NCBI RefSeq assembly: GCF_020509005.1
Contig: NC_063013.1
Coordinates: forward strand, 6,820,001 to 6,884,000
Direction of reading: 5' to 3'
Length of the DNA: 64,000 bases
Source: Fulvia fulva
Taxonomy: Eukaryota > Ascomycota > Dothideomycetes > Mycosphaerellales > Mycosphaerellaceae
The notes beneath the pieces were generated by a model that was not told the origin of the DNA, made no database searches, and was given only the letters and a program-made list of their open reading frames with translations. Both the position numbers and the translations under genes were made by a program. Position 1 is the first letter of the stretch. Every line of letters starts with the position of its first letter. This document shows, piece by piece, positions 1 through 45,779 of this stretch.

Positions 1-1052
1 AGCCACCGGTCTTCAGCAGTGAGGTGTTTGCGTAAATAGCTTGCAATGGCTGAAGAAGTTTCATGCAGGATGGCATATGTCATGCATCCGTTAGGTCCAA
101 CTATAGCCTCCCTGTCCGCGTGCTTGACCGCGACGCTGGAGAAGACGTTGTGAATGAGGGTCTCTTGACTTTGTAGTGCTTGCTTGGAATTCCAGGCCAA
201 TACCCTGTTTCGATCGACCGCTTCAAAGGCATGGCATGCTAGGTCTTTCACGGAGAGGCTTGCGACTCCTTGGTTGGATGTGTGGCGAATGCAGATCTGC
301 TCGACAATGGACGTAAGAACGCGTACGAATCGAGTCGCCTCACGACGGCTCATACTGGACCGACGATAGACCAGACTCATTCGGACTTCGACTTCAGCGC
401 CAGCCTCACCATAATGACAACAGATCTCGAGGCAGAGGTTGGAATGGATAGGCATGGATGGTCGAATGGTAATGTTGCTGTCACAGCTGCTGTACTGGAT
501 CGCCACAGCAGAGAAAGGCCCAAGACAGCCATGGTGGTCAATGACATTCTCTCCATCACTATGCGCAATGTCCTCAAGTTCTCCAATAATCCGATCGAGG
601 CCATAGCCAGGCTTTAGGACTCCGCGAACTCGAGCCGTGTTACTGACTTGCGATGCTGTACCGTTACGAACAAGACGTCGAAAGGAGACGACCTCATCGC
701 TCGAATAGATGTGGAGATTGACCAGTAGGGCTAGTTCCAGACATGACGATGCAGCACTAGACGAAGCGGCTTGAGGTGCCGTAGCGCGGATCATTTTTTC
801 CAAGATCGTGGAGTACAACGGCTCCACTTCGATGCTGTGGTCGCCTCGGGTAGCACCACCGAGAACATGACGTCTGGAAGGCATCCCGTACGTTCGATGC
901 ACTGCGCTTAGGAGCTGGAGAGTGGGATCAGCAGTGACCAGATTGATGCTATCTCGTGCACTTGATCTGTTTTCGCTCGAAGAAAATCGGTCACAGGAAG
1001 TCACATCGTGCCCGTGCCTGTTCCCGCACAGCCTCTCACGTGACGAATGCCC
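1..1052 (-). CDS. Nonribosomal peptide synthetase fragment: C-domain end and A-domain start (partial)
   Basis: Read on the minus strand, one frame stays open from about 1052 to the left edge, roughly 350 codons; a TAG closes it upstream at 1053-1055. The frame carries features of a fungal condensation domain: SSDEVVSFRRLVRNG resembles the conserved block around DDVVFG..VSGRN, and a later GLDRIIGELEDI segment matches the stretch before the usual V.QHQN region. The C-to-A linker VLAWN is at about 189-203. An adenylation-domain start follows (TLIHNVFSSVAVKHADREAI, then a MTY.IL core). NRPSs build peptides by thioester templating, with the A domain choosing the amino acid. The catalytic HHxxxDG motif of the C domain is not visible, and the part between the VSGRN-like and QHQN-like blocks looks short. 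The gene is therefore truncated, spliced or decayed at its 5' side. It faces away from the isopropylmalate genes at 1684-6096. Family is fairly sure; product is unknown. Confidence 0.72.
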
Positions 1053-1169
1053 CTAGACTACTCCAAAGTCAGCTTGGCCCCTGCCCGCTACGTCCTTACC
1101 TAATACGTCAACGACAGGCACATAGGGGTTGCCCGGACATGAACTTACACCTCGAACAGGTATAGTAAG

Positions 1170-1238
1170 TGTAAAGCTCTAGGTCAAAAGGAACGCTCCT
1201 TAAGAGAGCTGAGTAGTCTGGTTATATATAGTTTCACA
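1170..1238. repeat. Left 69-bp LTR of miniature element
   Basis: Direct repeat of 1409-1477 with three mismatches; begins TG, ends CA, and is preceded by GTAAG. Confidence 0.88.
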
Positions 1239-1408
1239 CACCCCCTCAGGTTTGGTCGACATGCAATGCTATGCGGCCAAAGCTAGAATTGAATTGGACG
1301 GTGCTAATGCTGTTCAGTATTCCGTGAGGCTTTTGCGGGCTTTGTTCTGCGTGATGAAACTTTTCGCTCCTAGTGAGCTAAAGCTGTGCGGAATTATGGT
1401 CTCATAAC

Positions 1409-1477
1409 TGTAAAACTCTAGGTCAAAAGGAACGCTCCTTAAGAGAGCCGAGTAGTTTGGTTATATATAGTTTCACA
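1409..1477. repeat. Right 69-bp LTR of miniature element
   Basis: Direct repeat of 1170-1238; begins TG, ends CA, and is followed by GTAAG at 1478-1482. Confidence 0.88.
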
Positions 1478-1683
1478 GTAAGGCTGAAGATGCTAGATTA
1501 ACGCAAACTAACTTCTGTCATTTGATCGCGGCGTATCCAGCTCCCACGGACGCATGGGTCATGGATGGAAGTGAGCTTTAGGATCACAAACGCTTGGTCC
1601 CAAACCTGGATTGCGAAAGTACACCAAAGCTATGGGACTGACCATTAGACTCTTCTTGGAAACATTTTGAGCGGCTCTCATCG

Positions 1684-3508
1684 ATGAATTGCCTATGCAA
1701 CATGTCCGCGATATCAAACTCCGGCACATTGACATTGAGAGAAAAGTATGGCGATCGAGTACCGGCCTACAATAATCGAGGGCGGAAATGGCCAGACGCT
1801 GTGCTCGAAAAGTGCCCGATTCTCTTGTCCACAGACCTCCGAGACGGCAATCAGTCCTTGCGCATACCTATGGTAAGAGCCGCACACGCAACTACATGCA
1901 ACCGCTAAGTGTAATAGACATTCGCTCAGAAACTACGATTCTACCATCTAATCGTGTCAATCGGATTCAAGGAGATCGAGATCGGTCATCCATGTGCCAA
2001 CGACACCGAGTTCGAGTTCATACGCCATCTTGTTGACACTCAAAATCTAATAGCAGATGACCTTCTTGTTCGAGTGATCGCTCCGTGTAGCGAGGAGGCG
2101 GTCGAGCGTGCGATGCAGAGCGTCAATGGCGCACCAAAGGCCGTCATTTTCACATATCTACCTAGCAGCGACAATTATAGGGAGACTGTGCTGGGGATAT
2201 CAGAAAATGATTGGGTGGATCGTGCGGTCAGAGTCACAAGGTACGTACGATCACTGACGCACAAGAGTCAATATCGAAAGCGGACCAAATGGGCCTTTAA
2301 CTTTGGGTTTGAGGATTACGCCAATGCCCGACTGGAGGCGGTGATCGGATGCGCAGAGGCAGTAAAAGCGACCTGGCGCCCAAGCAGGGAAGAACCAATG
2401 ATTTTTTTCCGTCGCTTGCAGCGTGGAAAGCTCGATGCCGAACATATTCGCTGATCAGATCGAACGATTCTGCCAGGGTGTATCAGACAGGTCGTGCTGG
2501 AGACTATCGGACCATACACACAACGATCGAGGTGGTGCCCTGTCAGCTGCTGAGCTCGCAAGTCTGGCCGGGGCAGACCGTGTCGAGGGATGTTTGTTTG
2601 GGAACGGAGAGCGTGCTGGCAACATGGATCTGATCACATATGGACTCAATCGACTAAGTGATGGCATAGACTGTGGACTCGACGTCAGCAAGCTACAAGA
2701 GGTGCGCCAAGAATACCAAGACATTGTGGGAATACCTATACACCCGAGAACGCCATACTCAGGAGAACTTTGTCTCAAAGCGTTCAGTGGTGGGCATCAG
2801 GACGCTATCGTCAAGGGACTCCGGCGTCGAACATTGGCAGCTAGCGATGCCGTCGGTTCAAGCACATACTGGCCAAAGTGGAGCGTTCCATACTTTCCGA
2901 TCGACCCCGCAGATATCGGATCCAGTCCTGAGGATATCATCGAGATCAACAACCAGAGCGGGAAGAGTGGTGTAACGTGGGTGTTAGAGTCCCGCCTTGG
3001 TCACGAAGTCTCTCGAGAACATGCCGAGGAGACAACACGCAAGGTGAAGATGCTCCTCGCTGGTAGACATAAGGCGATGGAGGCCGATGAGATCTGTCAA
3101 ATTTATCAACAAGTGATCTCCAATCACGCCCCTATCAGACCGTTCTGGGATCGTGTCGACGCCACATTGCACCATGTCCGAAAGGTGCCGGCGACATGTC
3201 CGCTGAGCTACACCTGGACAAGAGATATCTACCGGGGTCCTCAGGCTGTATTGCTAGCCTGCTCGGCGGAACTCCACAAACGTGGCTATTTTCAAGAAGA
3301 ACAGGTGATCCTGCACGTTGTGGACTTGTGTAATGCAGATGTTGAAGCTGGGGGCTTGGGCTTCCGTGATCGTCGCTGGCCAGACTTTTGCCCGGATGAG
3401 TTGAGCCGATTACTCGAGCTAGTAGAATCATGGCTGTTGACTATCCCTTCGCAGAAAAGTAGTCCTCCGAAGCCGTCACTGCTGCATAAGCCAATTAACA
3501 GACAACCC
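1684..3508 (+). pseudogene. 2-isopropylmalate synthase-like gene (LeuA family), frameshifted
   Basis: The family condenses acetyl-CoA with a 2-oxoacid, the first step of leucine synthesis and of 2-oxoacid chain elongation. Exon 1 (1684-1872) carries the DLRDGNQSL substrate/metal motif. A GT-AG intron at 1873-1929 joins it in phase 0 to IGFKEIEIGHPCANDTEF. Later come HTHNDRGGALSAAEL (metal-binding HxHND), GADRVEGCLFGNGERAGNMD and INNQSGKSGV, all typical of IPMS. The frame breaks at a run of seven T (2402-2408): sequence before it reads in one frame and SSMPNIFADQIERF after it in another, so one extra base explains the shift. The C-terminal regulatory-domain region (~3110-3500) resembles the family only in pieces, in two frames (SAELHLDKRYLPG near 3200-3238, then VILHVVDLCNADVEAGG), suggesting further indels. 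No in-frame stop separates it from the dehydratase at 3509. It is probably decaying, although sequencing error in the T run is possible. Confidence 0.8.
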
Positions 3509-6096
3509 ATGACTCTGGCGTCGAAAATCCTCGCTCATCACGCCATCTCTTGTGGTCAGACAAGCCACGTTGCAGTGGGAGAGATCCTTCGCGTAGACGT
3601 CGACTGGATCATTGCGAGTGAGCTTTCGTGGATGGGCATGAAACGAAGCGTCGCAAAGTTGGGGTTCAAACCCAAAGCGTGGCGAAATGATCGCTTCTGG
3701 CTCGCTGGAGATCATGCCGTGGGTATAAGCAACCCACCCCTGCGAAGGCCCCTTTTACCGACTCGCAAGGTCTGTCCTTCGAGGCTCAAGCCTAGATCGA
3801 CGTCTTGAGGCTCGACGACTCCCAGAGCCATGTGTAGGGTACTTGACGCGATTGGCTGATCACATTTGCAGATCCACGCAACTATGAAGAGCCCAAAGTA
3901 CGCAATCTCATAAATGGCCTAGAGGAGGCAAGACGAGAGCTCAGAATGACAGAGTATCAGGGTACCAATGTAAGTTCCACGAACAGCGTCCATCCGGGCC
4001 TGGCTTGCTAATCGGTTGCCTAGTATACGATACTTCATACGGAGTTCGTAAGGGAGAGAGTCGAGCCTGGCATGCTAGTTCTCCGTTCAGATTCGCACAC
4101 TTGTTCAGCCGGCGCGGCAAGTGCGCTGGCCATAGGTCTTGGAGCAGCTGATGTGATGGCAGCTCTAACGACGGGACAAAAATGGCTGCGAGTGCCAGAG
4201 TCGGTCCGGGTCGATTTTGGTGGCCGGCCATCATGGCATGTGTAAGGCATTGTTTCGCCCTGTTGTGACCTTTGGCTAACTCTGTGTGCAGTGGTGGCAA
4301 AGACATTGTCTTGCATCTACTAGGCCGGCTTAAGCGCAACACGATAACAACAGATCGAGTAGTAGAGTTCGGAGGACCTGGGGCTGCATTGCTATCTTGT
4401 GATGCTCGATTTGCCATTTGCAACATGTGCACCGTACGTTCTCATTTGCATTTCAGAGTTCCTTCTTGACCAATAGTAACCGCACAAGCAGGAGTTGGGC
4501 GCAATCACGGGCATTTTTCAACCAGATGCTGTGACTGAAAGCTTCATTAAAGGTCGCCAGAAGCGAATGTACAAGGAGAACTCGTTGTTCTTCGCTGCCG
4601 ACAGTGATGCACCATACTCACATCACACCACCATAGACCTAAGCGAAGTGCAGTCATACATTGCTTTGTACCCGAACCCGGATGATGTTCAACCAGTGTC
4701 TATGCACCTTGGCATGGAATTCGATGGCATATTCATAGGGGCGTGTACGACTACAGAAGAGGACCTTGTGCTTGCAGGATTGATACTGCGAGCGGGGTTG
4801 GCCAGAGGGCTCCCTTTGTCAGCTGGGAGACGCATTGTGGTCCCGGGTAGCTTGCCCATTGTATGCAATCTGCGCAAGCTAGGGCTGGTTGATGTATTCG
4901 CACGCAGTGGTTACGAACAGCCTGCGCCGAGCTGCAGCTTATGCCTTGGCATTGGCGCAGATGTAGCGCCGTCCGGCACCAAATGGCTCACGACACAAAA
5001 TCGAAATTTTGAGAACAGGATGGGGAAAGGCAAGTATCGACCTCAATGCTGCCGACTGAGGCTTGTCACTGACGAGAAGGGGCCTTGTAGGAGCCATTGG
5101 ATACTTGTGCTCTGCTGCTGTAGCGGCAGCCTCTTTTTTTTCCATGGCTTTGACAGATCCTTCGGAGTTGCTGGACGACATTTCCTCCGACGAATATCAA
5201 GACTGCCTAATGCAGATATCCTCATCCAAACGTAAGATAACAACATCCAGCGAAGGCTTGCAGTACAGCGAGCCACGTCTCAGTGGATGCGTTGTCGCCC
5301 CATTGCCAAGCCACGCCATGGTGAAGCCGCCTCCAAGGCAAGCATATCCTGCTGTACAATCTCGTGTATACCAGCTCGGTGATTTTGTAGACACCGATGC
5401 CGTAAGATCCACTTCCCGGGATGTAGAATTGCCAGGTACTGATGTCGAAGTTCAGATCATACCAGCAAAAGCCTGCCTAGGAAGCCCTAGCGACGAAACG
5501 CTTGGGGATCACTGCTTGGAGATCTACAAGCCCGAATTTCGTGACAGCGTACGCAACGGTCTGGCAGTGGTGGTAGCTGGCAAAGCTTTTGGATGTGGAT
5601 CGTCACGGGAAGAGGCCGCTCGAGCACTGAAAGGTGAACTCGTTCGATCAAAGCATCAGTCTTGTATGAAAATTGACCAAAATCCGCAGGCCTTGGTATC
5701 AAGTGCGTGATTGCCCGGTCGTTCTCGTACATCTTCTCGCGCAATATGTTCAATATCGGCATGCTTGCCATCACCATTGATGCGGATGACTTTTTCGCTG
5801 CAGCAGTCCATGGGGAGCAGATTACCATCGACATGGATCAAGAGGCGATCTCGGTAAATCATCACACATGGGCATTCGCCTTGGGAGATATCGAGCATGG
5901 TGTTTTCCGTGCAGGCGGCTTGGGAGTAACTCTACACGGTCATAGCGAAGAGCTGTCTGCACAACAAGAGCCCACCGACGTGGTCAAGAATGCTGAACAA
6001 ATGGAATCCTGCTCGAGCTTAGGTCGGAACAGCAGCATCTCCACCAAAGCCACGGGTTCAAAATGGGTACGTAGCCTTGATGATCTGTCATGGTGA
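3509..6096 (+). CDS. Aconitase-family 3-isopropylmalate dehydratase-like protein (LeuC-LeuD fusion), 7 exons
   Basis: The family isomerises 2- to 3-isopropylmalate (or homologues) through a 4Fe-4S cluster. Seven exons fit both the splice sites and the family: 3509-3722, 3872-3969, 4024-4241, 4292-4433, 4492-5029, 5091-5633 and 5690-6096. They sum to 2160 nt, which closes exactly as 719 aa plus stop. The N-terminal part is LeuC-type: MTLASKIL start, [19 protein letters not shown] with cluster ligand Cys131, PSCSLC with ligands Cys372 and Cys375, and [11 protein letters not shown]. The C-terminal swivel part is LeuD-type, with [13 protein letters not shown] then [17 protein letters not shown]. 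Length suits fungal fused enzymes. The fifth intron (5030-5090) uses a GC donor (GCAAGT). ATG 3509 matches the family start, but the upstream IPMS frame runs into it without a stop, so a fusion cannot be excluded. Next to an NRPS and an IPMS paralogue, a role in elongating an amino-acid precursor (as proposed for homotyrosine in echinocandin clusters) is likelier than housekeeping leucine synthesis. Confidence 0.88.
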
Positions 6097-6424
6097 CACA
6101 ACCAAGAGCCAGCTTGCATTGAATTCTTGAGATAGCTTTGAGGATCAATTGCCCTGACAAGGAAAATTGCACCCAACTTCAGCGCTTCGCCGCTCTTAAG
6201 AGCTCGAGACGATCACCTCATGTGCAGTCAAAACGAAGACACCTTGTGCAGAAGGCGTCGATCAGCCGGCGGCTTGGCTTTCATCTTCACCATGCTAGTG
6301 TATAAGAATTTACTATGCAGGCAACATAGCACCCTACCCAGAGCATGAGTAGTAGAAACTATAGAGTACGGTGAAGCTTATAGCATTAGGAAGGACAAAT
6401 AGGATTCTATATAGCTCTGGCTTA
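6097..6424. other. Convergent intergenic spacer
   Basis: Tail-to-tail spacer between the dehydratase and the minus-strand hydrolase. No coding frame or repeat was recognised; it presumably holds both 3' ends. Confidence 0.6.
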
Positions 6425-7567
6425 TTACAAGCTCTTCGAAAAGCTTACGATATCTCTGATGGCCTTGTTATGGACTTCAGGTAACAGCTTCCTGAAGATC
6501 AACGCCGAAGCATGCACCACACCCAAATTGACTTGAGCGGTCACCTCGATACCAGCAGCGAGCAGCTTTCTAGCGTACGCCATACCCTCGTCTCGCAGAA
6601 CATCAAGCTCGTCCATCGAGAGGATATGAGGAGGTAGACCGGTACAGTCATCTGTCGACGCATAGTATGGCCAAGCAAGAGGGTTCTCCGAGTCGTCGCC
6701 GCTGTAGTATCTACTCATTCCAGCCATCATGGCGGTGTAGAGCCAGTACCCTTCACATTCGTACAGGCTGGGAAGTTCTTCCAGTTTGCGGGTGTCGCTC
6801 CAGCCGTATCCGTTACTGATGTAGGGAGCCATGGCGTAGACACCTGCGATCTGATCGACCCAGCCTTCACGTTTGGCTTTTAGAGTAGTTGCTAGTGCGA
6901 GGTTTGCTCCTCCGCTCTCGCCTTGAAGGACAATGCTGCTGACTTTGAGCTCCGTCTTATGCGTGCTGATATACTGAACCGCAGATGCGCAGTCATTCAG
7001 ACCTCTCGGGAAAGGGTTGCTGCCTTTGGAACTCCAGACATTGCGGAAGTCGACAGCTATCGCCACGACACCTTGGGCTGCGAGGGATGTACACCATCGG
7101 AAGTGGATCTTATTGGCAGTGTCCAAGACCACCATCCCACCGCCATGGAAGTACACCACGCACGGCAAGTCTCCTTCCTGGCTAGCTGGGCGGAAGACAT
7201 GCAGCTTCCGTTCCACTCCATCATAACTCTCGAAGGTCTGAGTTGACTGCTCGACAGCTGGTTCGTCTTCGTCCCCAGGTAGGTCATTCGGCAGTACCTC
7301 ATACAGCGTCGAGGTGTCCGTATGGCTCTTGGCCATTTGTTCATCTGAAGAAAGCTCTTCCAGGGACATGTCGGCGTACGGGTTGGGTTGACTGCCGTCC
7401 ATGCCAAATGCTCGCAGAGTCTCCACGATCTTTGGATGGGCTCGCGGGTCCTGGAATATCTTCATGTTTGGGTCCCCGAGTCTGCCGGGGCCTTTGTAGG
7501 TTGTTGAGAGCACTGCTTCTGTCAAGCCATTTTCCACGTTTGGGTTGAGGCCGGATTTAGTTGCCAT
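6425..7567 (-). CDS. Alpha/beta-hydrolase (HSL/acetyl-esterase type)
   Basis: Single intact frame of 380 aa without introns. YFHGGGMVV (HGGG at residues 141-144) is the oxyanion-hole motif of the hormone-sensitive-lipase branch (abhydrolase_3). GESGG (216-220) holds the nucleophile Ser218. SMDELDVLRDEG supplies the acid, probably Asp322, and LGVVHAS the His352, so the catalytic triad is complete. No signal peptide or membrane segment is seen, suggesting a cytosolic carboxylesterase/lipase-like enzyme. The first ~90 residues are an extension before the core. Proteins of this type occur in several fungal secondary-metabolite clusters, where they hydrolyse or transfer ester or acyl groups. Here the gene converges on the isopropylmalate dehydratase-like gene, so cluster membership is plausible but not shown. 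Start ATG at 7567 is chosen because it opens the frame and no alternative lies upstream. Confidence 0.9.
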   Translation of the reverse strand: MATKSGLNPNVENGLTEAVLSTTYKGPGRLGDPNMKIFQDPRAHPKIVETLRAFGMDGSQPNPYADMSLEELSSDEQMAKSHTDTSTLYEVLPNDLPGDEDEPAVEQSTQTFESYDGVERKLHVFRPASQEGDLPCVVYFHGGGMVVLDTANKIHFRWCTSLAAQGVVAIAVDFRNVWSSKGSNPFPRGLNDCASAVQYISTHKTELKVSSIVLQGESGGANLALATTLKAKREGWVDQIAGVYAMAPYISNGYGWSDTRKLEELPSLYECEGYWLYTAMMAGMSRYYSGDDSENPLAWPYYASTDDCTGLPPHILSMDELDVLRDEGMAYARKLLAAGIEVTAQVNLGVVHASALIFRKLLPEVHNKAIRDIVSFSKSL

Positions 7568-36126: not shown

Positions 36127-39100
36127 ATAGAGAACGAGACTAGGTTTATAAGAAAGAGAGCAGCACCTCTTCTGACAAGAGAGAACCACGAAACATAGTT
36201 CAAGCTAATAAGAATATACCTAGTATCAAAGCAGGTTGACTAGGTCCTCGAGGACATTATTACGGACATTCCCGCTACAACCCTAGCGACACCCTCTACA
36301 TTATCGGAGTCATCCCTTCCTTTAGATCAAGCGATAAGGAAGGCATCGTACAGACGGCATAATGCAACGGCCCTATATAAGATGTATATCTGTCTGTCGA
36401 CAGATAACCAAGAGATGACATACGAGATCCGGTATACGAAGGAGTTGTAGGAATGGGCTGAAGCTAAATATAAGAGAAGACTTCTCGCTACTGGAAGAAG
36501 TTTGCTTCAGCAATACACCAATTTCGTGATGACAGAGGACCAGTCAATAGATGACGCCTAGTAGGAGCTTAGCTTAATTGCAAGGAGGGCTGTTTCAATC
36601 TCGCCTTAGTTCCAAGACATCAAGACTAAGGACAGAAAGATCTAGCAACTCTTAGTAGCTCTGCTAGACTCATTTGGCTCAATTCGCGATGCAATTGATG
36701 CCTAGGTGAATCTCTCACTACAAGACATTCTTGCAATTCTTAGGGAGAAGCAAGAATCAATGATTCATTAAGGGACAGCTATGTTCGCTAAGAAGGGTTC
36801 CTAGGGCAAGCTCACGTGCCATCTCTACGGTAGTGACCATTTTATGAGCAAGTGCCCACACCTTTCTATAGCTCAGCAGGCTGTTAGGAACAAGGACAAA
36901 CTAGCTAGGGTTACCTACCCTGCTAAGAGACAACCGTCACCACCTCGTAGGAGGTCATTATTACCAAACCTTCGTGATGTCCTCAAGGTGATAACGGACC
37001 TTACAAAGCAGATAAAGGAGAGCCGTAAGCCAAAGGCCTCCTCTAGTAAGCCTGCAAGGGCCTATACGACCTAGGAAGACGCATTAGACCCTGAGATACT
37101 ATCAGAAGATGATGATGTTGATGAGGTTGCCCATTCCACTGTGGAAGCCAAAGGCAAGTACCCCTCGTCCGAGTGGTTGCTTGACTCTTGTGCATCATCA
37201 CATATGACTGACCAAGATTCACTATTCAGGACACTGAAGCCTCTTCAAAAGAGGAAGTGGATCAAGGTTGGGGGTGGCTATCTACAAGCTACACATATGG
37301 GAAGTGCAGTAATGGGTGGTCCTTCTGGAAAGCAAATTGTCTTAGAAAATGTCCTGTTTGTTCCTGGCCTTAGAGTTAGTCTTGTTTCGTGGAATCAGTT
37401 CAGCCAACAGTTTGCTGTCCAACCACCCAGTTTCACCCTAAAATCCTTGTCTGGTAAACCCGTTGTCCAGACCAAACTTCGAGGAGGAGTACCGTTTATC
37501 CACTCGATCTCGGAAATTCTTGAGCCACAGCATGCTGGCATACTCTCTCAAGAACGTGACGGTACCGCTATGGCTAACACTGAGTCCGAAGATCAGTAGG
37601 AGCTATGGCATAGAAGATGTGCACACCTTGGCAAGGGACTGCTAAGAAACCTGCATAGAGTCACTGACAAGAAAGATCCCATTCCTGTTCCTTCTGAACA
37701 CCAGAATTGCAAGGTCTGCTCCCTTGCAAACATGAGGAATTTCAAAGGACCTGCCACAGAGAGGAAAGGGGAGAGGCTGGCCCTCATCTCCATTGACATC
37801 TGTGGGCCTTTTCAGGGCGCAGTCTCTAGGCTAGGATACAAATATTGGCTTGAGATTGTAGACAACTTCTCTAGGAAGAAGTGGGTAATCCCTTTGAAGG
37901 CCAGGAGCGACGCTCCTGCAGCCCTACGGGATTGGAAGGTCCAGGCAGAACGGCAGTCAAGGTGCTTTCTGTCTGCGATCCGCAGTGATGGTGCAAAGGA
38001 AATTCTCGCCTTGCTAAAAGAGTGGGAGAAGGAGTTTGGCACTCAGATGGACACAACTGATGCCTACAACTCTCTTCAAAATGGACCTGTGGAAAGGTCA
38101 ATTCAAGCCTCTGAGAACACAGTCCGGGCTATGCTTGAAGACTCTGGCATGCCAGTTGAGTTCTGGCCAGAAGCTTTGTAAGCACAGACTGTGATCAGAA
38201 ACAGACTGCCTAATGGTCCGATCATTGATGGTATTGCTCTTTCACCAGAAGAAGCCTTTACTGGCCAAGTACCGTCAGTCGACCATTTCCGCGTCTGGGG
38301 ATGCAAAGCTGTGGTCTATGTAGACCCAAGAGCCCAACCTCAAGGCTTGAGGAGAGACAAGTTGATGAACCGAGGAAAAGAAGCCGTGTTTGTGGGCTAC
38401 TCAGAAAACACCACAAAACAATGGCTGTTCTGGGATCCCGACATGAAAGCAATAAAAGCGTATAGTCACGTCGACTGGTTTGAGAATGAGAAGGGGGGAG
38501 ATATGGATCTTGGTATCACCTTCACTAACCAGCCGAGTCGAGCGCCACAGCGCAATCCTGTTGGGAGGAAGCCCTTTGGGGCGAAATTTTCCGATAGGGG
38601 ATTATCAGAGACACCGTTACGAAGGCCAGGAGAAAATATTGAGGCGGTTTCAACACTGTCGAAGGCCGATAACGGTGGATCTATACAGAACCTACCCAAG
38701 TCATCAACACCACAGCAACCGCTGTTTGTGCAACTTCCCCCTCCCCCAAAGGACATTGGGGAATACCAGAAGTTTGGAGATCAGGGTACTCCAATGAAAG
38801 AAAAAGAAGATGTCGTTCAGTTCGACCCATCCGAACACCCAGCGCCACCTCAGGTTGCAGGCAACAAGAGGTCAAGGGGGGACGGAGATGATAACTCTGA
38901 AGAGCATGAGGCTAAACACCATAAGGCTCTTATCGCCCAGATGTTCCATCTAGACCCTACAATGAGCTGGGTAGAGGAGATTCTGAACGACGTGGAAGAA
39001 CATGCATTTGCTGCTGTTGGGCAGGCCATAGCCTATCAGCAGGAAGTGCCAATCCCAAAGTCCTATAAGGCAGCCGTAGGAGACCCCGAATGGGGACATA

Positions 39101-40647
39101 TGTGGAGAGAGGCAATCGAGAACGAACTTATTGCCTTAGCAAGCAACAACACCTGGGAAGCAGTTGTACCGCCAAAGGGTGCGAATCTAATTACTTCTAG
39201 GTGGGTCTTTGATGTGAAAAGAATGATTAGTGGAGCCATTGAGAAGTTCAAGGCAAGACTAGTTGCAAGAGGGTTTTCACAGAAATATGGGGTTGACTTC
39301 GAAGAGACCTTTGCACCTACTGTTAGACATGATACTCTCCGAGTATTAATGGCAGTAGTATGTGAGAGAGATCTCGAGATGCACCTAGTGGATGTGAATA
39401 ATGCTTTTACCCAAAGCAGCCTTCTTGAAGACATCTATATGATCCCACCCCCAGGAGTTGAAGCACCTCCAAACATGGTGTTCAAGGTCCTACGAAGCCT
39501 TTATGGGCTTAAGCAAGCAGCTAGAGACTGGAACAAGCTCTGTGTTGCGAAGCTAGAGAAGATTGGATTTACCCAGTCCCAGGTAGATCCATGCCTACTT
39601 ATCTATACGGATAGAGACCTTATGGTCCTTACCCATGTGGATGACATACCCATTGCAGCTCCGAAGCTGTCAGATGTTCAGTGGTTTAAGGCTGAGCTTG
39701 GAAAAGTGTTTAAGATTAAAGATCTTGGTGAACCTACGAAGATCCTTGGAATGAGGATTACAAGAGACAGGTCCCAAGGCACTTTGAAGCTTGATCAAGG
39801 ACACTATGTCCACGCTAACTTAGCCAAGATGAACATGGCTAGAGAGAAGGCTACGCCAACCCACTCACCTATAGAGAGCTACGAGCATTTAGTGCCTACG
39901 GCACCTATGGATGAGAGGTGCAACAAACAGGATTACCAGAGCCACAATGGTACCTGGATGTGGCCAATGACAATGACAAGGCCAGACTTAGCATTCCCCC
40001 TTGGAAGAATTAGCTCATTTGTTGCTGATCCCTCGCAGCAGCATATGAAGGCTTTGAAGAAGCTCTCCCGATACCTGCGGTCGTACCCAGACCTAGGTCT
40101 TATGTATAGAAAGGGAGGGGGCAATCTCCAGGGATACTCGGACTCTGACTACGCTATGGACAAAGTGGATAGAGTCTCAATTCTGGGATACGTGTGGTTC
40201 CTTTGTGGATCACCTGTGTCCTGGATGAGTAGGAAGCAGAAGTCTGTTGCAACATCAACAATGGAAGCTGAGTTCATGGCTATGAACGCAGCCGCAAAGC
40301 AGTCACAATTTCTTGCTGCTGTCCTCAGGGAAATGGGGTGCCCAGAACTGGTAGGAAAGAGCTCTTTCCAGCCGAGTGTAAGGGCAAGCAAGGGCACTGT
40401 TGACGAGCTAAGGCCAGTCAAGCTCATGGGTGACAACCAAGCCGCTTTGACACTTGTCAAAGATGCCCATGTGCATGAAAGGTCAAAGCATATTGATGTT
40501 GCATATAACTATGTCAGACATCTCTGGTGGCAGAAGAAGATTGCAGTGGACTACTGCCATACAAAGGACATGGCTGCTGATGGGTTAACAAAGCCCCTCA
40601 ATGGCCAGCAGTTCCAAAACTTTGTAAGGCAGCTCCAGCTTGCGTAA
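36127..40647 (+). pseudogene. Gag-pol polyprotein of copia-1 (PR-INT-RT-RNase H)
   Basis: A single frame of about 1506 codons. The presumed start is now ATA at 36127, where the inverted copy has ATG. Gag (to ~37070) has about ten TAG/TAA stops and a zinc knuckle CHLYGSDHFMSKC with its second Cys now Tyr (~36820-36860). Pol has only three stops (37072-37074, 37597-37599, 38179-38181). Visible domains: protease DSCASSHM (~37180); integrase with an HHCC region near 37610-37730, SIDICGPF (Asp), IRSDGAKE (Asp) and NGPVERSIQ (Glu); RT with ITSRWVFDVKR, VARGFSQKYGVDF, YGLKQAARDW and active site HVDD (~39633-39644) in place of the usual YVDD; RNase H with YSDSDYA, STMEAEFMA and KHIDVAYNYVR. The last 818 codons (38191-40647) are fully open. 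The element encodes all enzymes needed for copy-and-paste transposition, but this copy is inactive. Confidence 0.9.
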
Positions 40648-40682
40648 AGGGATTGTAGGAGACCATGTGGCCTGAGTGGGAG

Positions 40683-40917
40683 TGTTGAGAACATACAGGC
40701 CGCAGGACAAGCATGTAGGTGTGGGTGTGTCATGTGATAGATCACGTGACTAGGGTTTGCCAGCCCCTATAGGCTGGCAAACATCCGGACACCTAGCATC
40801 TACCTACACCAACACCGGCGATACTGTATGTAGATACACGCTATCCCATTGGGTCCTTCTTCGTCTTTGGTGTGATCCGCCGTCTTCCACTGCTGCGCAA
40901 CTCGTACCTGTTTAACA
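40683..40917 (+). repeat. 3' LTR of copia-1
   Basis: 235 bp; begins TGTTGAGAACATACAGGCCG and ends CTGTTTAACA. Unlike the 5' LTR it keeps its CpA/TpG sites. Hairpin at 40755-40782 (arm GTTTGCCAGCC, 11 bp). Confidence 0.92.
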
Positions 40918-41055
40918 GGTACGAATGTCTCTTCGAAGTTAACGCCGAACTTCTATAAAAACCCTCTTACGACAAGTCTTGCCTTAAACTTTTCGATTGC
41001 TCCGCTAAAAAGTCTCTTTACGTCTAAGACCTACTTAGAGGTAACTATATTCGTC
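40918..41055 (-). pseudogene. RT fragment of older minus copia-3 (left of the young LINE)
   Basis: Aligns with the minus copia around 48625-48770 (shared GTCTCTTCGAAGT, TATAAAAACCCTCTTA and AGTCTTGCCTT), i.e. the start of the copia RT read on the minus strand. It is continued at 45985 after the young LINE, which proves the LINE is an insertion. Confidence 0.75.
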
Positions 41056-41136
41056 GGCACACACGCTATATACCGAGTATGATATACCTACTTATATAGC
41101 TTACGGATACACGCGGCAGAAAAACGGCGTGACACG

Positions 41137-42396
41137 ATGATAGCGATCGCAGGAAACGACCAGGAGCAGGAGAGTAACGAGTGGAAGGAGGTCTGCAGGA
41201 AGGCAGAAACAATGGCAATGGCAGGAGATGGCGAGCACCCAGAAAGAGCACTTAAGGGGATGATTTTGGAGCTCCTTGGAGGGCTAAAGGCACTAAGGAG
41301 CCAAACAGGACAGATCATTAACAGGACAGTAGCAGCAGCAGCAAAGAAGAGGACACAGGAAGGCCAGAAACTAAGCCAACCAACCTGGGCAGCAGTTGCA
41401 TCCCAAAACCCTCCCCCCCAGAAAACAGCTATCAAGGTCTACATTTCCGACTAGCAAGAGCAGAAAGAGATTGAGGGCCTGTCAGGCAAGGAGATCATAC
41501 AGAAGATTGGGATACAAGGCATCATTGGAGCCAGGAAAGAGAAGGGTGGTGTCCTTAAGCTGTTCACAGCACAGGAGCAAGACAGGAAGAGGCTAGAGAC
41601 ACAGAAGGAGTGGACAGTCAAACTAGGCAAGACGGCTAAGGTCTCACACCAACAAAATATGGTTATTGCCCATAGGATGACCACAAAGTTTGACATTGAA
41701 GGAGACCTTAAGAGGCTGCAGGACCAGAACCAGGCTGTATGCCCAGGGCTACAGATCACAAAAGCAGCATGGGTCAACAGAAAGACAAAGGACACAAAGA
41801 GAGAGTCTTCTCTAGTGCTCTGGATAGGCACTGTAGAACAGGCAAACACCGTGCTTGACAAGGGCATCTTCTGGGAATGCGAAAGAATGAACACAGAAAT
41901 CCATAGAAGCACCCACAGACTACTGCAATGTTTCAAGTGCCAACAGTATGGTCATATCTCTACTAGATGCCCAAGCCAAAAGGACACTTGTTCCCACTGT
42001 GCTGGTAGCCACAAAGTACAGAATTGCACAGCCCCAAAGAGTGAAGCCAGATGTGCATGCTGTGGAAAGAAACACCCTTCCTGGTCCCAAGACTGCACAG
42101 CTAGGATTGAGGCAAAGAGGAGGGCAAGAGAAGCCAGGATCAACACCCCTATCAGATTCCAGACAGGGACAATCACCCAAGAACCCCTAAGGACTGTCTA
42201 CAACCCTCTGAAAAGAGGCAGAACAGAAGAGACCACACAGGCCCAAGGCCACCCTGCTATGGGTAGACCAAAATCAATTATGGTTGCAGGAAGAGACCCG
42301 TCACAAAGCAGGCTCAACCTTACCACAATCCCAAATAGCAGCCAGCAGCAGGAAGCACGAGAAGACCAGCAGGAGACCAGCATGGATGAGTCATGA
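41137..42396 (+). pseudogene. LINE-C ORF1: nucleic-acid-binding protein (one TAG)
   Basis: 419 codons, one in-frame TAG at 41452-41454, otherwise open. The C-terminal half carries three zinc knuckles: CFKCQQYGHISTRC, CSHCAGSHKVQNC and CACCGKKHPSWSQDC. This is the standard ORF1 organisation of Tad1/I-type LINEs, where the protein coats the element RNA. The N-terminal third is rich in Glu/Gln/Lys, with an AAAAKKRTQEGQK stretch. The stop is explained by CAG to TAG. The TGA terminator overlaps the ATG of ORF2 (ATGA at 42393-42396), which suggests termination-reinitiation coupling. Confidence 0.9.
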
Positions 42397-45300
42397 TTGA
42401 GACACCTAATCTTACCACTATCCAGTACAACGTCAACAAAAGCCAGCACAAGGTCCAGAGAAGCTTTCTCCAAGCACTGGACCCAAAGAAACACCTAGTT
42501 ATTGCAGTCCAGGAACCTTGGATCAACAGCAAATCTAACAGACCATCTACTGCTAACGACCCAAGGTATCACACACTCCTAGCCAAACAAGGCACCCCTA
42601 GAACATGCATGTACATCAGCAAAGAGATGGCAACAGACAGCTGGGAACAAATCCAACAGGAAGGGGGAGACATCACCTCAGTCAGACTCAACACTAACCA
42701 AGGCAGTATCCACATCCACAGTGTATACAACCCACCCCCCAGCTCTAGAAGCAGCACCCAGCTGGGCACACTACAACAGCTGCCAGACATCCTGCAGAGT
42801 GACTCCCAACACATCGTGCTGGGAGACTTCAACTTGCACCATCCTACATGGGGATCAGACTTTGCACCTGCCCATCACTTCCTAGCTAACAGACTCCTCT
42901 CCACTACCCAAAGCAACAACATGCACCTAGTTACCCCAAAGGGCCTAACTACCTGGTCACAGAGAGCAAGCTCAAGCACCATTGACCTGTGCTTTGCATC
43001 ACATGACCTGCAGCAGAAGGTCACCAGATGCTGGGTTAACCAGGACTTGGAGTCCTCATCAGATCACCTCCCAATTCAGGTGGAGTTTGAAACACAGACA
43101 CAGCAGGAAGGAGACCTAGAACCTCAGCTGGCCTAGAAGGCAGCCAACTGGGAACAGATCAGACAAGACCTAGAACAGAAGCTAGCTGGACTAGAGACCA
43201 GGAGACTGGAAACAGCCTTAGACATAGACCAAGCAGTGGCAGAACTGGTTAGAACAATGCAGGAAACTGCAGCAGCCTACACTAGAGAAAAGAAACAGTC
43301 ACTGTACTAGAAGCCATTCTGGACAAAGGAATGCTCAGAGAAGGTCAAGGCAGCCAGGCAGGCCAGGAGAGCCCTTACCCAGAGTCACTCCCAGGAAGCA
43401 TGGGACAGATACAACCAGGCAACCAGAGACAAGAAGGCCCAGATCAAGAGGGACAAGATGCTGGAGTGGAGGTCAACAGTTGGATCCATTACCCAGAATC
43501 CTGAGAAGATGTGGAAACTAGCAAAGTGGGCAAGACAACCCACACAGGACAGAAACATGCTGCCCCAGTTTCCAAACATTGAAGACCAGGAAGGAGTAAT
43601 CCAACACACTCTCCCAGGAAAGGCACAGGCATTGGGGAAACATTTCTTTGGCACACAGGTAGAAGCTGACCTGCAGGATCTGGAGGGCAGTGTGTATCCA
43701 ACACCACTAGAGCAATCCTGCACAGTGGGAGAGGGAGAGATCAAGAGCATCATTAAGACACTCTCAGGAAACAAGGCCCTAGGACCAGATGGGATTCCAA
43801 ACTTGTTCATCAAGACATGCAAGGACCAGATCTCCCCTGCACTGTCAAACATCTTTTCACAGTGCATGGCCCAAGGACACTGCCCTAAACACTTCAAGGA
43901 GTCACTGACTGTGGTCTTGAGAAAACCACAGAAAGAGGACTACACAAAGCTAAAGGCATACAGACCTATTGCCTTGCTCAACACACTAGGCAAACTCCTG
44001 GAAAAGATCATAGCAGAAAGGCTGACAAACCTAGCTGAAGAACATGGAATCCTTCCTGAAGAACAGATGGGAGGCAGGAAACAAAGATCAACACTAACAG
44101 CTGTGGAACTTATCACAGAGCAGATCAAGACCCTATGGCACTTTGGGAACAACAAAGCAGCCACACTCCTCTCACTAGACATATCAGGAGCCTTTAACAA
44201 TGTCTCACACCAGAGGCTGATCCACATCCTGAAACAGAAGGCTATCCCCAACTGGACAGTCCAGTTTATCCAGTCCTTCCTCAGAGGCAGAACCACAAGA
44301 CTAAGACTGGGCAGATACAAATCTGACAGCATGCCTACAGAGACAGGAATCCCACAGGGATCAACAATGTCTCCAATCCTGTTTCTCCTCTTTATGGCAG
44401 ACCTGCTAGCAAAGCTAAACTCCAGAAACACATCAGCCTCAGGGTTTGTAGATGACACAAACATCCTAGCCTGGTCAGACAGCACAGAAGAGAACTGCAG
44501 AATCTTGCAGAAGAAACACAAGGAATGTGAGGAATGGGCCAGGAAACATGGAGCCAGATTTGCCCCAGAGAAGTATCAACTCATCCACTTCAGTAGAGCC
44601 AGAAACAGACACAATATGCAAGCCCCAATCACTATTCAGGGACACACAACAGAACCCTCAAGTGAATTAAGGGTGCTAGGAATATGGATGGATCCAAAGC
44701 TCAGCTGGGGACCACAGGTCAAGAAAGCACAGGCAAGAGCAGACAACAACAGGCAATCAATTGACAGGCTTACAGCCTCCACATAGGGAGCCACATTTGC
44801 GAAAGCAAAGGTTATGTACAAGGCCATTGTGAAGCCAGCCATGCTATATGGAGCCCAGATCTGGTCAGCCCAAGACAAGATCCCAAAGAGAATTGCAGAT
44901 CCCATCAGCAGAGCCCAAGCCTCCTGTCTGAAAAAGGTGCTTGGAGCATACAAGTCAACTCTAACAAGGGTGGTCGAAATGGAGTCTGGCTCCCCACCAG
45001 CCAAGCTCTACCTTCAAGGGTTGAGATACCAGTATGCAGGAAAGACGTCTGCATACCCAGCCCAGCTAGTAATCCAGAAGGCAGTCAACAAAATCAGGAG
45101 CCAGTGCACAAGAAGGCACAGACAAGCAAGACCCAATCCAGCCCCACAGAAGCAGCAGGACCTGCAGAAGTTCAAAGAACTAACAGAACAGCTGCACCTA
45201 GCCCAGCAGGAACAGGACAGAAGGGCTCAAGGGAGAGGATCAGCAGCCAGCCAAGGGAAGAAGCAACAGTCTCTAGCTGAAAGGATGGCAGGACTCCTCT

Positions 45301-45779
45301 GGAAGACTGAATGGACAAGAACCCCACAGAGGCCAGGAACCCCAAAGGCACTCCAACAGTTTGGTAGCCACAACTACCTACTGTACTCAGACCTGACCAG
45401 GTCAGAAGCAAGCATAGCAATACAAATCCGCTCTGAACACATCGGAGTCAGGGCATACCTGCATCAGAGAAAAGTCCCAGGTATCGAAGACAAGAGTTGC
45501 CCATGCGGCTACCTGTCCCAGAATGTCGAACATAGACTTCTGGTTTGCAAAGAATGGAGTACAGGGAGAGGTGAATGGAGGGCAAGGGCAAGGAACAGAA
45601 ACTTCCAAGCCATGATCAGCAATAAGGGAGACCTCCAGAGAATTACGAGGTGGATCATCCACCAAGGATTTTTGGAGCAGTTCTCTCTTACTAGGGAAAC
45701 AGAGAGATGGATTGAGGAGAGAAAGAAGGAGGAGGAGAGCAGGAAGAGGGGGACAACTCTAGGGTTGCAGACAAGGTAG
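42393..45779 (+). pseudogene. LINE-C ORF2: endonuclease-reverse transcriptase (three TAG)
   Basis: 1128 codons in one frame with TAG at 43134-43136, 43308-43310 and 44784-44786. The N-terminal APE-type endonuclease shows TIQYNVNKSQ, VQEPWIN, LGDFNLHHPTWG and SSDHLPIQVEF, and nicks target DNA to prime reverse transcription. The central RT shows ALGPDGIPNLFIK, YRPIALLNTLGKLLEK, LSLDISGAFNNVSH, GIPQGSTMSPILF and active site FVDDTN (~44445-44462). The C-terminus has a CCHC-like CPCGYLSQNVEHRLLVC. No RNase H domain was recognised. All three stops fit CAG or TGG to TAG changes, so very few mutations separate it from an active element. Confidence 0.93.

What the first reader, a model, noticed from the sequence alone, without database searches (positions are those of the whole stretch)
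1..7567. NRPS + isopropylmalate-pathway paralogues + hydrolase: edge of a secondary-metabolite cluster
A minus NRPS fragment, a LeuA-like gene, an intact LeuC-LeuD-type enzyme and an esterase lie within 7.6 kb. Leucine-pathway paralogues beside an NRPS are established in echinocandin biosynthesis, where they elongate an aromatic 2-oxoacid to homotyrosine, and are reported in some other peptide clusters. Inference: this locus once made, or makes, a peptide with a homologated amino acid. The dehydrogenase and aminotransferase that would complete the pathway are not in the window and may lie left of position 1.
Basis: partly seen in the sequence, partly recalled or inferred. Interest (0 to 1): 0.75.

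Follow-up and report, generated by a model that had tools for sequence, protein, structure and literature searches.

The report
Broken peptide cluster with fused enzyme
In the tomato leaf-mould fungus this stretch is a decayed gene cluster for a small peptide, and two enzymes that lengthen an amino acid, separate in other fungi, are joined in one reading frame here and in unnamed relatives.

Summary
The window is Chr2 of Cladosporium (Fulvia) fulva Race 5. A minus NRPS with four adenylation domains runs out of the window to about C2:6,806.4 kb. Five in-frame stops and three frame changes against a relative make it a pseudogene. Diverging from it is one gene, not two: an AMT7/HtyA-type isopropylmalate synthase (IPMS) reads without a stop into an AMT8/HtyD-type aconitase. 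Four unnamed relatives (67-72% identical) keep the same open junction, seen 104 residues into the aconitase core; another unnamed protein keeps NRPS modules 2-4 open. In C. fulva the IPMS half has one frame break; the aconitase half looks intact. Housekeeping LEU4 and LEU1 lie elsewhere. No isopropylmalate dehydrogenase or branched-chain aminotransferase was found within 1 Mb, so the prediction that they lie to the left fails. The fusion is a new variant: the searches listed no fused protein from a named organism. Bifunctionality is inferred, not shown.

The parts
1..1052 (-). 5' part of a four-A-domain NRPS: about 240 residues that look (by eye) like a partial condensation domain, then the start of A1; continues outside the window to about C2:6806412
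   Evidence: open frame C2:6821052-6817231 and A-domain homology C2:6820188-6819013; Pfam of the continuation; end from relative P0237
1165..1245 (.). about 70-bp dispersed repeat, copy 1, between the two divergent genes
   Evidence: 15 matches in the genome, this copy included
1405..1477 (.). about 70-bp dispersed repeat, copy 2
   Evidence: 95% identical to copy 1
1702..6096 (+). fused IPMS-aconitase gene; predicted introns 1873-1917, 3723-3871, 3970-4023, 4242-4291, 4434-4491, 5030-5090 (GC-AG), 5402-5455, 5634-5689; stop 6094-6096
   Evidence: tblastn of relatives, alignments; start and intron ends read by eye from the sequence, no RNA evidence
1702..3109 (+). IPMS half (HMGL-like domain plus IPMS_D2; no LeuA regulatory domain found)
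   Evidence: Pfam; closest relatives P0002-P0005; tree
2396..2406 (+). frame change without room for an intron; the only lesion seen in this gene
   Evidence: six of six relatives and LEU4 change frame here; a protein cluster P0001 with the same downstream ORF is recorded from 2 contigs of at most 7,303 bp
3110..3510 (+). junction: about 55 fast-changing residues, then the N-terminal extension typical of AMT8/HtyD-type aconitases; open in one frame, no methionine
3511..6096 (+). aconitase (LeuC plus LeuD type) half; GACTTTEED and CSLC cysteine motifs and GCGSSREE present
   Evidence: tree
3723..3871 (+). 149-nt GT-AG intron absent from the unspliced ORFs P0002-P0005; no second copy found in the genome
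6425..7567 (-). alpha/beta-hydrolase esterase, brefeldin A esterase family; convergent with the fused gene; membership of the cluster unproven
38191..45779 (+). retroelement ORFs in the low-GC block that borders the locus (44814-45779 has no Pfam match)
   Evidence: RVT_2 at 38191-40647; zinc knuckle, endonuclease and RVT_1 at 41659-44786

Best explanation
This is the remains, in C. fulva, of a non-ribosomal peptide cluster that used an elongated (homologated) amino acid. Working model for the intact form in the relatives: the IPMS half condenses acetyl-CoA with a 2-oxo acid (probably that of an aromatic amino acid), the covalently attached aconitase half isomerises the product, a dehydrogenase (not in the cluster; perhaps a paralogue from elsewhere in the genome) decarboxylates it, an aminotransferase makes the amino acid, and a four-module NRPS with a terminal condensation domain builds and releases a peptide, probably cyclic. 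Shown: the domains; the open IPMS-aconitase frame in five sequences; cluster-type phylogeny; the lesions of the NRPS and the IPMS in C. fulva; a relative's NRPS ORF without stops; housekeeping copies elsewhere. Inferred: the substrate, bifunctionality, the peptide, and that the NRPS and fusion relatives come from one organism.
For: Genome and domains. Fusion: of the 120 proteins listed (of 5,731), four (P0002-P0005, 67-72% identical) cover 94% of the query, across the junction, besides the window's own P0001; no stop in 133 junction codons (chance 0.002 in one sequence); junction of 136-138 residues in all five, no methionine in the window or P0004. Type: window IPMS groups with P0002-P0005 (100/99), then P0006 (99/96), then C. 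zeina g3903 and P. fijiensis 190022 (100/99); the aconitase piece groups with P. fijiensis 190021 and C. zeina g3909 (93/96), away from own LEU1, LYS4 and an aconitase. Decay. Relative NRPS without stops: P0237, 3572 aa, modules 2-4, 65% identical to the A4 piece. Chemistry of AMT5-AMT8 and of homotyrosine: PMC8102738 and PMC7778625, passages.
Against: Dehydrogenase and aminotransferase are not near. Substrate not determined; an aliphatic 2-oxo acid is possible. P0002-P0005 and P0237 are unnamed ORFs (source lgn); their DNA and neighbours were not seen, the four fusions are visible only 104 residues into the aconitase core, and P0237 does not show module 1. C. zeina and P. fijiensis proteins are annotated as separate. 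The fold of P0002 is poor beyond the IPMS barrel (mean pLDDT 57.9, residues 599-743 under 50) and says nothing on the joint. At the NRPS lesion rate the fused gene would hold about two lesions (my arithmetic), so an intact aconitase half does not show selection.
Confidence: 0.72

Rival explanations
1. Two separate tandem genes that only look fused: stop and start hidden by an unrecognised intron, or the IPMS stop lost through decay in C. fulva.
For: C. zeina (g3903, g3909) and P. fijiensis (190022, 190021) are annotated as separate proteins; C. fulva is decaying; P0002, P0003 and P0005 have a methionine near the start of the junction.
Against: Four relatives without the C. fulva frame break have the same open frame with in-frame length changes only; the window and P0004 have no methionine in the junction; the joint is 40-44% identical between the window and these four.
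Confidence: 0.15
2. A peptide cluster whose leucine-type enzymes make an aliphatic or other homologue, or only supply leucine, not an aromatic homologated residue.
For: No enzyme was assayed; A-domain substrates were not predicted.
Against: Both halves nest with AMT7/AMT8 and HtyA/HtyD, which papers assign to tyrosine elongation (PMC8102738, PMC7778625, passages); no LeuA regulatory domain was found.
Confidence: 0.2
3. The locus is active in C. fulva; the stops and frame changes are assembly errors or lie in unrecognised introns.
For: Long reads are prone to frame errors; each single stop could in principle sit in a short intron.
Against: The assembly was polished with short reads (PMC9453070, passage); a cluster with the same downstream IPMS ORF is recorded from other, short contigs (P0001; their independence is not known); five stops lie inside, and three frame changes between, stretches that align to P0237; half of the C. 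fulvum NRPS genes are described as pseudogenes or truncated (PMC3895014, passages).
Confidence: 0.05

Closest known systems
AM-toxin cluster, Alternaria alternata apple pathotype (AMT1, AMT5-AMT8)
   Same: AMT7-type IPMS and AMT8-type aconitase beside an NRPS; cyclic tetrapeptide with an elongated tyrosine (PMC8102738, passages)
   Different: AMT7 and AMT8 are separate genes there; AMT5 and AMT6 are in the cluster; AMT1 is described as lacking one A domain, this NRPS has four; here NRPS and IPMS are broken
AM-toxin-like cluster 18 of Zymoseptoria tritici
   Same: same family of fungi (recalled); NRPS plus IPMS plus aconitase (PMC5561558, passages)
   Different: eight orthologues of AM-toxin genes in one locus, separate IPMS and aconitase, dehydrogenase and aminotransferase included
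Echinocandin/pneumocandin hty genes (HtyA-HtyD)
   Same: the two enzyme types and the elongation chemistry (PMC7778625, passages)
   Different: separate proteins, more distant than the AMT type in both trees
P. fijiensis MYCFIDRAFT_190022/190021 and C. zeina BST61_g3903/g3909
   Same: nearest named relatives of the two halves; consecutive (190022/190021) or near (g3903/g3909) gene numbers
   Different: annotated as two proteins; orientation and true gene borders not seen
C. fulvum NPS7 (2014 inventory)
   Same: multimodular, pseudogene or truncated, not assigned to a cluster (PMC3895014, passages)

Membership tests
AMT7/HtyA-type IPMS | nests among AMT7/HtyA-type proteins, not with LEU4 | tested here: met
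   tree of 15 rows, rooted by choice on the single LEU4 row, which has a long branch
AMT7/HtyA-type IPMS | HMGL-like plus IPMS_D2, no LeuA_dimer domain | tested here: met
AMT8/HtyD-type aconitase | nests among AMT8/HtyD-type proteins, not with LEU1, LYS4, ACO | tested here: met
   tree of 22 rows, rooted by choice on an own aconitase; the three housekeeping rows are very long branches
AMT8/HtyD-type aconitase | own N-terminal extension before the aconitase core | tested here: met
Homologation cassette (four enzymes beside an NRPS) | dehydrogenase and aminotransferase genes in the cluster | tested here: not met
   nearest Iso_dh match about 1.0 Mb away
AM-toxin cluster | NRPS orthologous to AMT1 | tested here: inconclusive
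   could list only proteins of about 1,132-3,601 aa; AMT1 is longer (recalled)
AM-toxin cluster | product with an elongated aromatic residue | not testable with these tools
   no chemistry
Bifunctional fusion enzyme | one uninterrupted reading frame through both halves | tested here: inconclusive
   open through the junction and 104 residues of aconitase core in P0002-P0005; the rest of their aconitase was not seen; in the window the frame is open through the junction but the IPMS is broken upstream
Bifunctional fusion enzyme | both activities in one polypeptide | not testable with these tools
   needs purified protein

The most novel reading that the evidence does not exclude
A lineage of fungi close to C. 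fulva evolved a single enzyme that carries out the first two steps of iterative 2-oxo-acid chain elongation, by fusing an AMT7-type synthase to an AMT8-type isomerase, and uses it with a four-module NRPS; C. fulva has lost the pathway. The fusion may be older still (P0006).
Probability: 0.5. Interest if true: 0.6.

Novelty: new variant of a known kind. Interest (0 to 1): 0.45.

Why it matters
Amino-acid elongation by leucine-type enzymes is used in echinocandins and AM-toxin, described with separate enzymes in the passages I saw. A natural fusion would suggest that the two steps profit from being linked, would be a tool for making homologated amino acids, and marks a gene that annotation may split. 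It also adds a case of secondary-metabolite loss in a biotrophic plant pathogen, at the border of a transposon block.

Tried and rejected
Introner-like origin of the extra 149-nt intron (introners in C. fulvum are recalled): no second copy found. Missing dehydrogenase or aminotransferase to the left or behind the transposon block: none found. Scattered remains: an isopropylmalate dehydrogenase paralogue on C10 and an aminotransferase on C5 each sit beside a P450, but without AMT5/AMT6 reference sequences I could not test a link. Structure of the fusion: poor model, not used.

Literature: five terms, 0 papers; 1 paper, Zymoseptoria; 5 papers with at least four of five terms. No title or abstract start in these listings, nor in those (of which 20 of 90, 20 of 211, 7 of 7, 7 of 7 and 12 of 37 were listed), speaks of an IPMS-aconitase fusion. 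Passages seen: PMC5561558, PMC8102738, PMC7778625, PMC3895014, PMC9453070, PMC9002641 (the last only mentions AM-toxin in general); one section of PMC9453070 was read. Only openly licensed papers are held, so this is weak evidence of novelty.

Full report
Where it is. The window is C2:6,820,001-6,884,000 of a 67,169,167-bp assembly in 14 contigs; C2 is 7,036,032 bp, which equals Chr2 of Cladosporium (Fulvia) fulva Race 5 in Table 2 of PMC9453070 (one section read). The first 8 kb have G+C of 0.50-0.53; from 8 kb on it is mostly 0.37-0.50, with retroelement ORFs.

NRPS. The window's own piece has no Pfam match, but its open frame continues left. Pfam finds A-T-C, A, T-C, A, T-C, A and T-C on successive pieces (the last C under its cut-off), that is four A domains and a terminal C domain, down to about C2:6806412. 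It is broken. Against the relative P0237 it changes frame near C2:6816510, 6811980 and 6806990 and carries five in-frame stops inside the aligned stretches, at C2:6816811, 6815621, 6813407, 6808015 and 6807238; a further frame change near 6817255 is read by eye, outside the reach of P0237. P0237 is 3572 aa without a stop and spans modules 2-4; it is 65% identical over the whole A4 query piece, and 51-62% over the four aligned stretches. The other listed hits are 27-35% identical (120 of 3,876 listed; only proteins of about 1,132-3,601 aa were candidates, so longer synthetases such as AMT1 could not appear). The gene may be the NPS7 pseudogene of the 2014 inventory (PMC3895014, passages); this is a guess.

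The fused gene. With six relatives and LEU4 as queries the IPMS homology runs to about 2406 in one frame and from about 2390-2402 in another: a frame change with no room for an intron. The second frame stays open to 3805. In it the IPMS part ends near 3109 and the aconitase core (MTLASKILAHH) starts at 3511. A search with this piece returned 5,731 proteins (120 listed): four, P0002-P0005, match at 67-72% over 94% of it; the other listed ones, AMT7-type and HtyA-type included, cover 42-62%, apart from the window's own P0001. A second search limited to the junction and aconitase start (131 hits, 120 listed; candidates of about 559-1,778 aa) gave the same four; of the other 116 listed, 115 carry an aconitase domain, one lists only another domain, and none lists an IPMS domain; AMT8 and HtyD are among them. 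So the stretch between the domains is mostly the N-terminal extension of that aconitase type. The joint itself, about 55 residues, is 40-44% identical between the window and P0002-P0005, against 77-78% in the IPMS part. P0002-P0005 are seen for 104 residues of the aconitase core, up to an apparent intron. P0006, a shorter relative, ends in a stretch that resembles the extension of two of four aconitases tested (1 of 300 shuffles as good, each); against the other two it was no better than shuffles (164 and 143 of 300). An older fusion is thus possible but weakly supported.

Aconitase half. Five relatives align from 3221 or later to at most 6003, with frame changes at predicted introns. Of the eight predicted introns of the gene seven have GT-AG ends and one GC-AG (by eye). 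Motifs GACTTTEED, CSLC and GCGSSREE are present. A 149-nt intron at 3723-3871 is absent from the unspliced ORFs P0002-P0005 and has no second copy found in the genome; the annotated proteins P0121-P0126 are spliced and cannot tell.

Phylogeny. IPMS tree, 15 rows: window with P0002-P0005 100/99, plus P0006 99/96, plus C. zeina and P. fijiensis 100/99; rooted by choice on LEU4. Aconitase tree, 22 rows: window piece with P. fijiensis and C. zeina 93/96, in an 11-row AMT8/HtyD clade 95/95; own LEU1, LYS4 and an aconitase stand apart on very long branches, so their exact place is unsure. Both window rows are short pieces (38% and 21% of columns).

Housekeeping and missing partners. LEU4 is at C2:3404528 (leuA_yeast, 807 bits) and LEU1 at C3:3075279 (leuC, 772 bits). 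The 12 Iso_dh and 5 Aminotran_4 matches lie elsewhere, nearest on C2 at 5.79 Mb. Tested ORFs with a Pfam match in the left flank (C2:6770-6806 kb) are a P450, carnitine acyltransferase, Rad51, Cse1, DUF3684, GH43, mannosyltransferase, zinc-type alcohol dehydrogenase, HsbA and a sugar transporter; right of the transposon block (C2:6882-6912 kb) ferritin-like, Fes1, FAD oxidase, HET/DnaJ, actin and RyR. Only chosen ORFs, mostly above 150 aa, were tested, and several had no match, so small or unusual genes could be missed.

Esterase. 6425-7567 minus is an alpha/beta hydrolase near brefeldin A esterase. A role in release or protection is untested.

Interpretation. The chemistry is that described for AM-toxin and echinocandins (passages of PMC8102738, PMC7778625 and PMC5561558). 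C. fulva has lost the NRPS and the IPMS half. What is new is that synthase and isomerase share one reading frame. Catalysis by the fusion is inferred.

Noticed in passing
window 1165-1245 and 1405-1477: About 70-bp dispersed repeat, two copies in the intergenic region between the divergent NRPS and fused gene; 15 matches in the genome, perhaps a small non-autonomous element.
   Followed up: partly
window 3723-3871: Intron present in C. fulva but not in the unspliced ORFs P0002-P0005; no second copy found; a possible intron gain of unknown origin.
   Followed up: partly
L031/L046, C10:76012-79354: Second isopropylmalate-dehydrogenase-like gene, 76 kb from the contig start, shortly before a cytochrome P450.
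   Followed up: partly
L040/L047, C5:3749066-3751463: Branched-chain aminotransferase paralogue beside a P450.
   Followed up: partly
P0121-P0126, first about 110 residues: N-terminal extension of AMT8/HtyD-type aconitases: for P0121 the matches to solved structures start at residue 110; its role is unknown.
   Followed up: no
window 5030-5090: Predicted GC-AG intron in the aconitase half.
   Followed up: no
P0180, P0187 (one search list): Annotated Trichoderma proteins join an aconitase of this wider family to a Zn2Cys6 domain (PF00172); other joins of this aconitase family may exist or be annotation errors.
   Followed up: no
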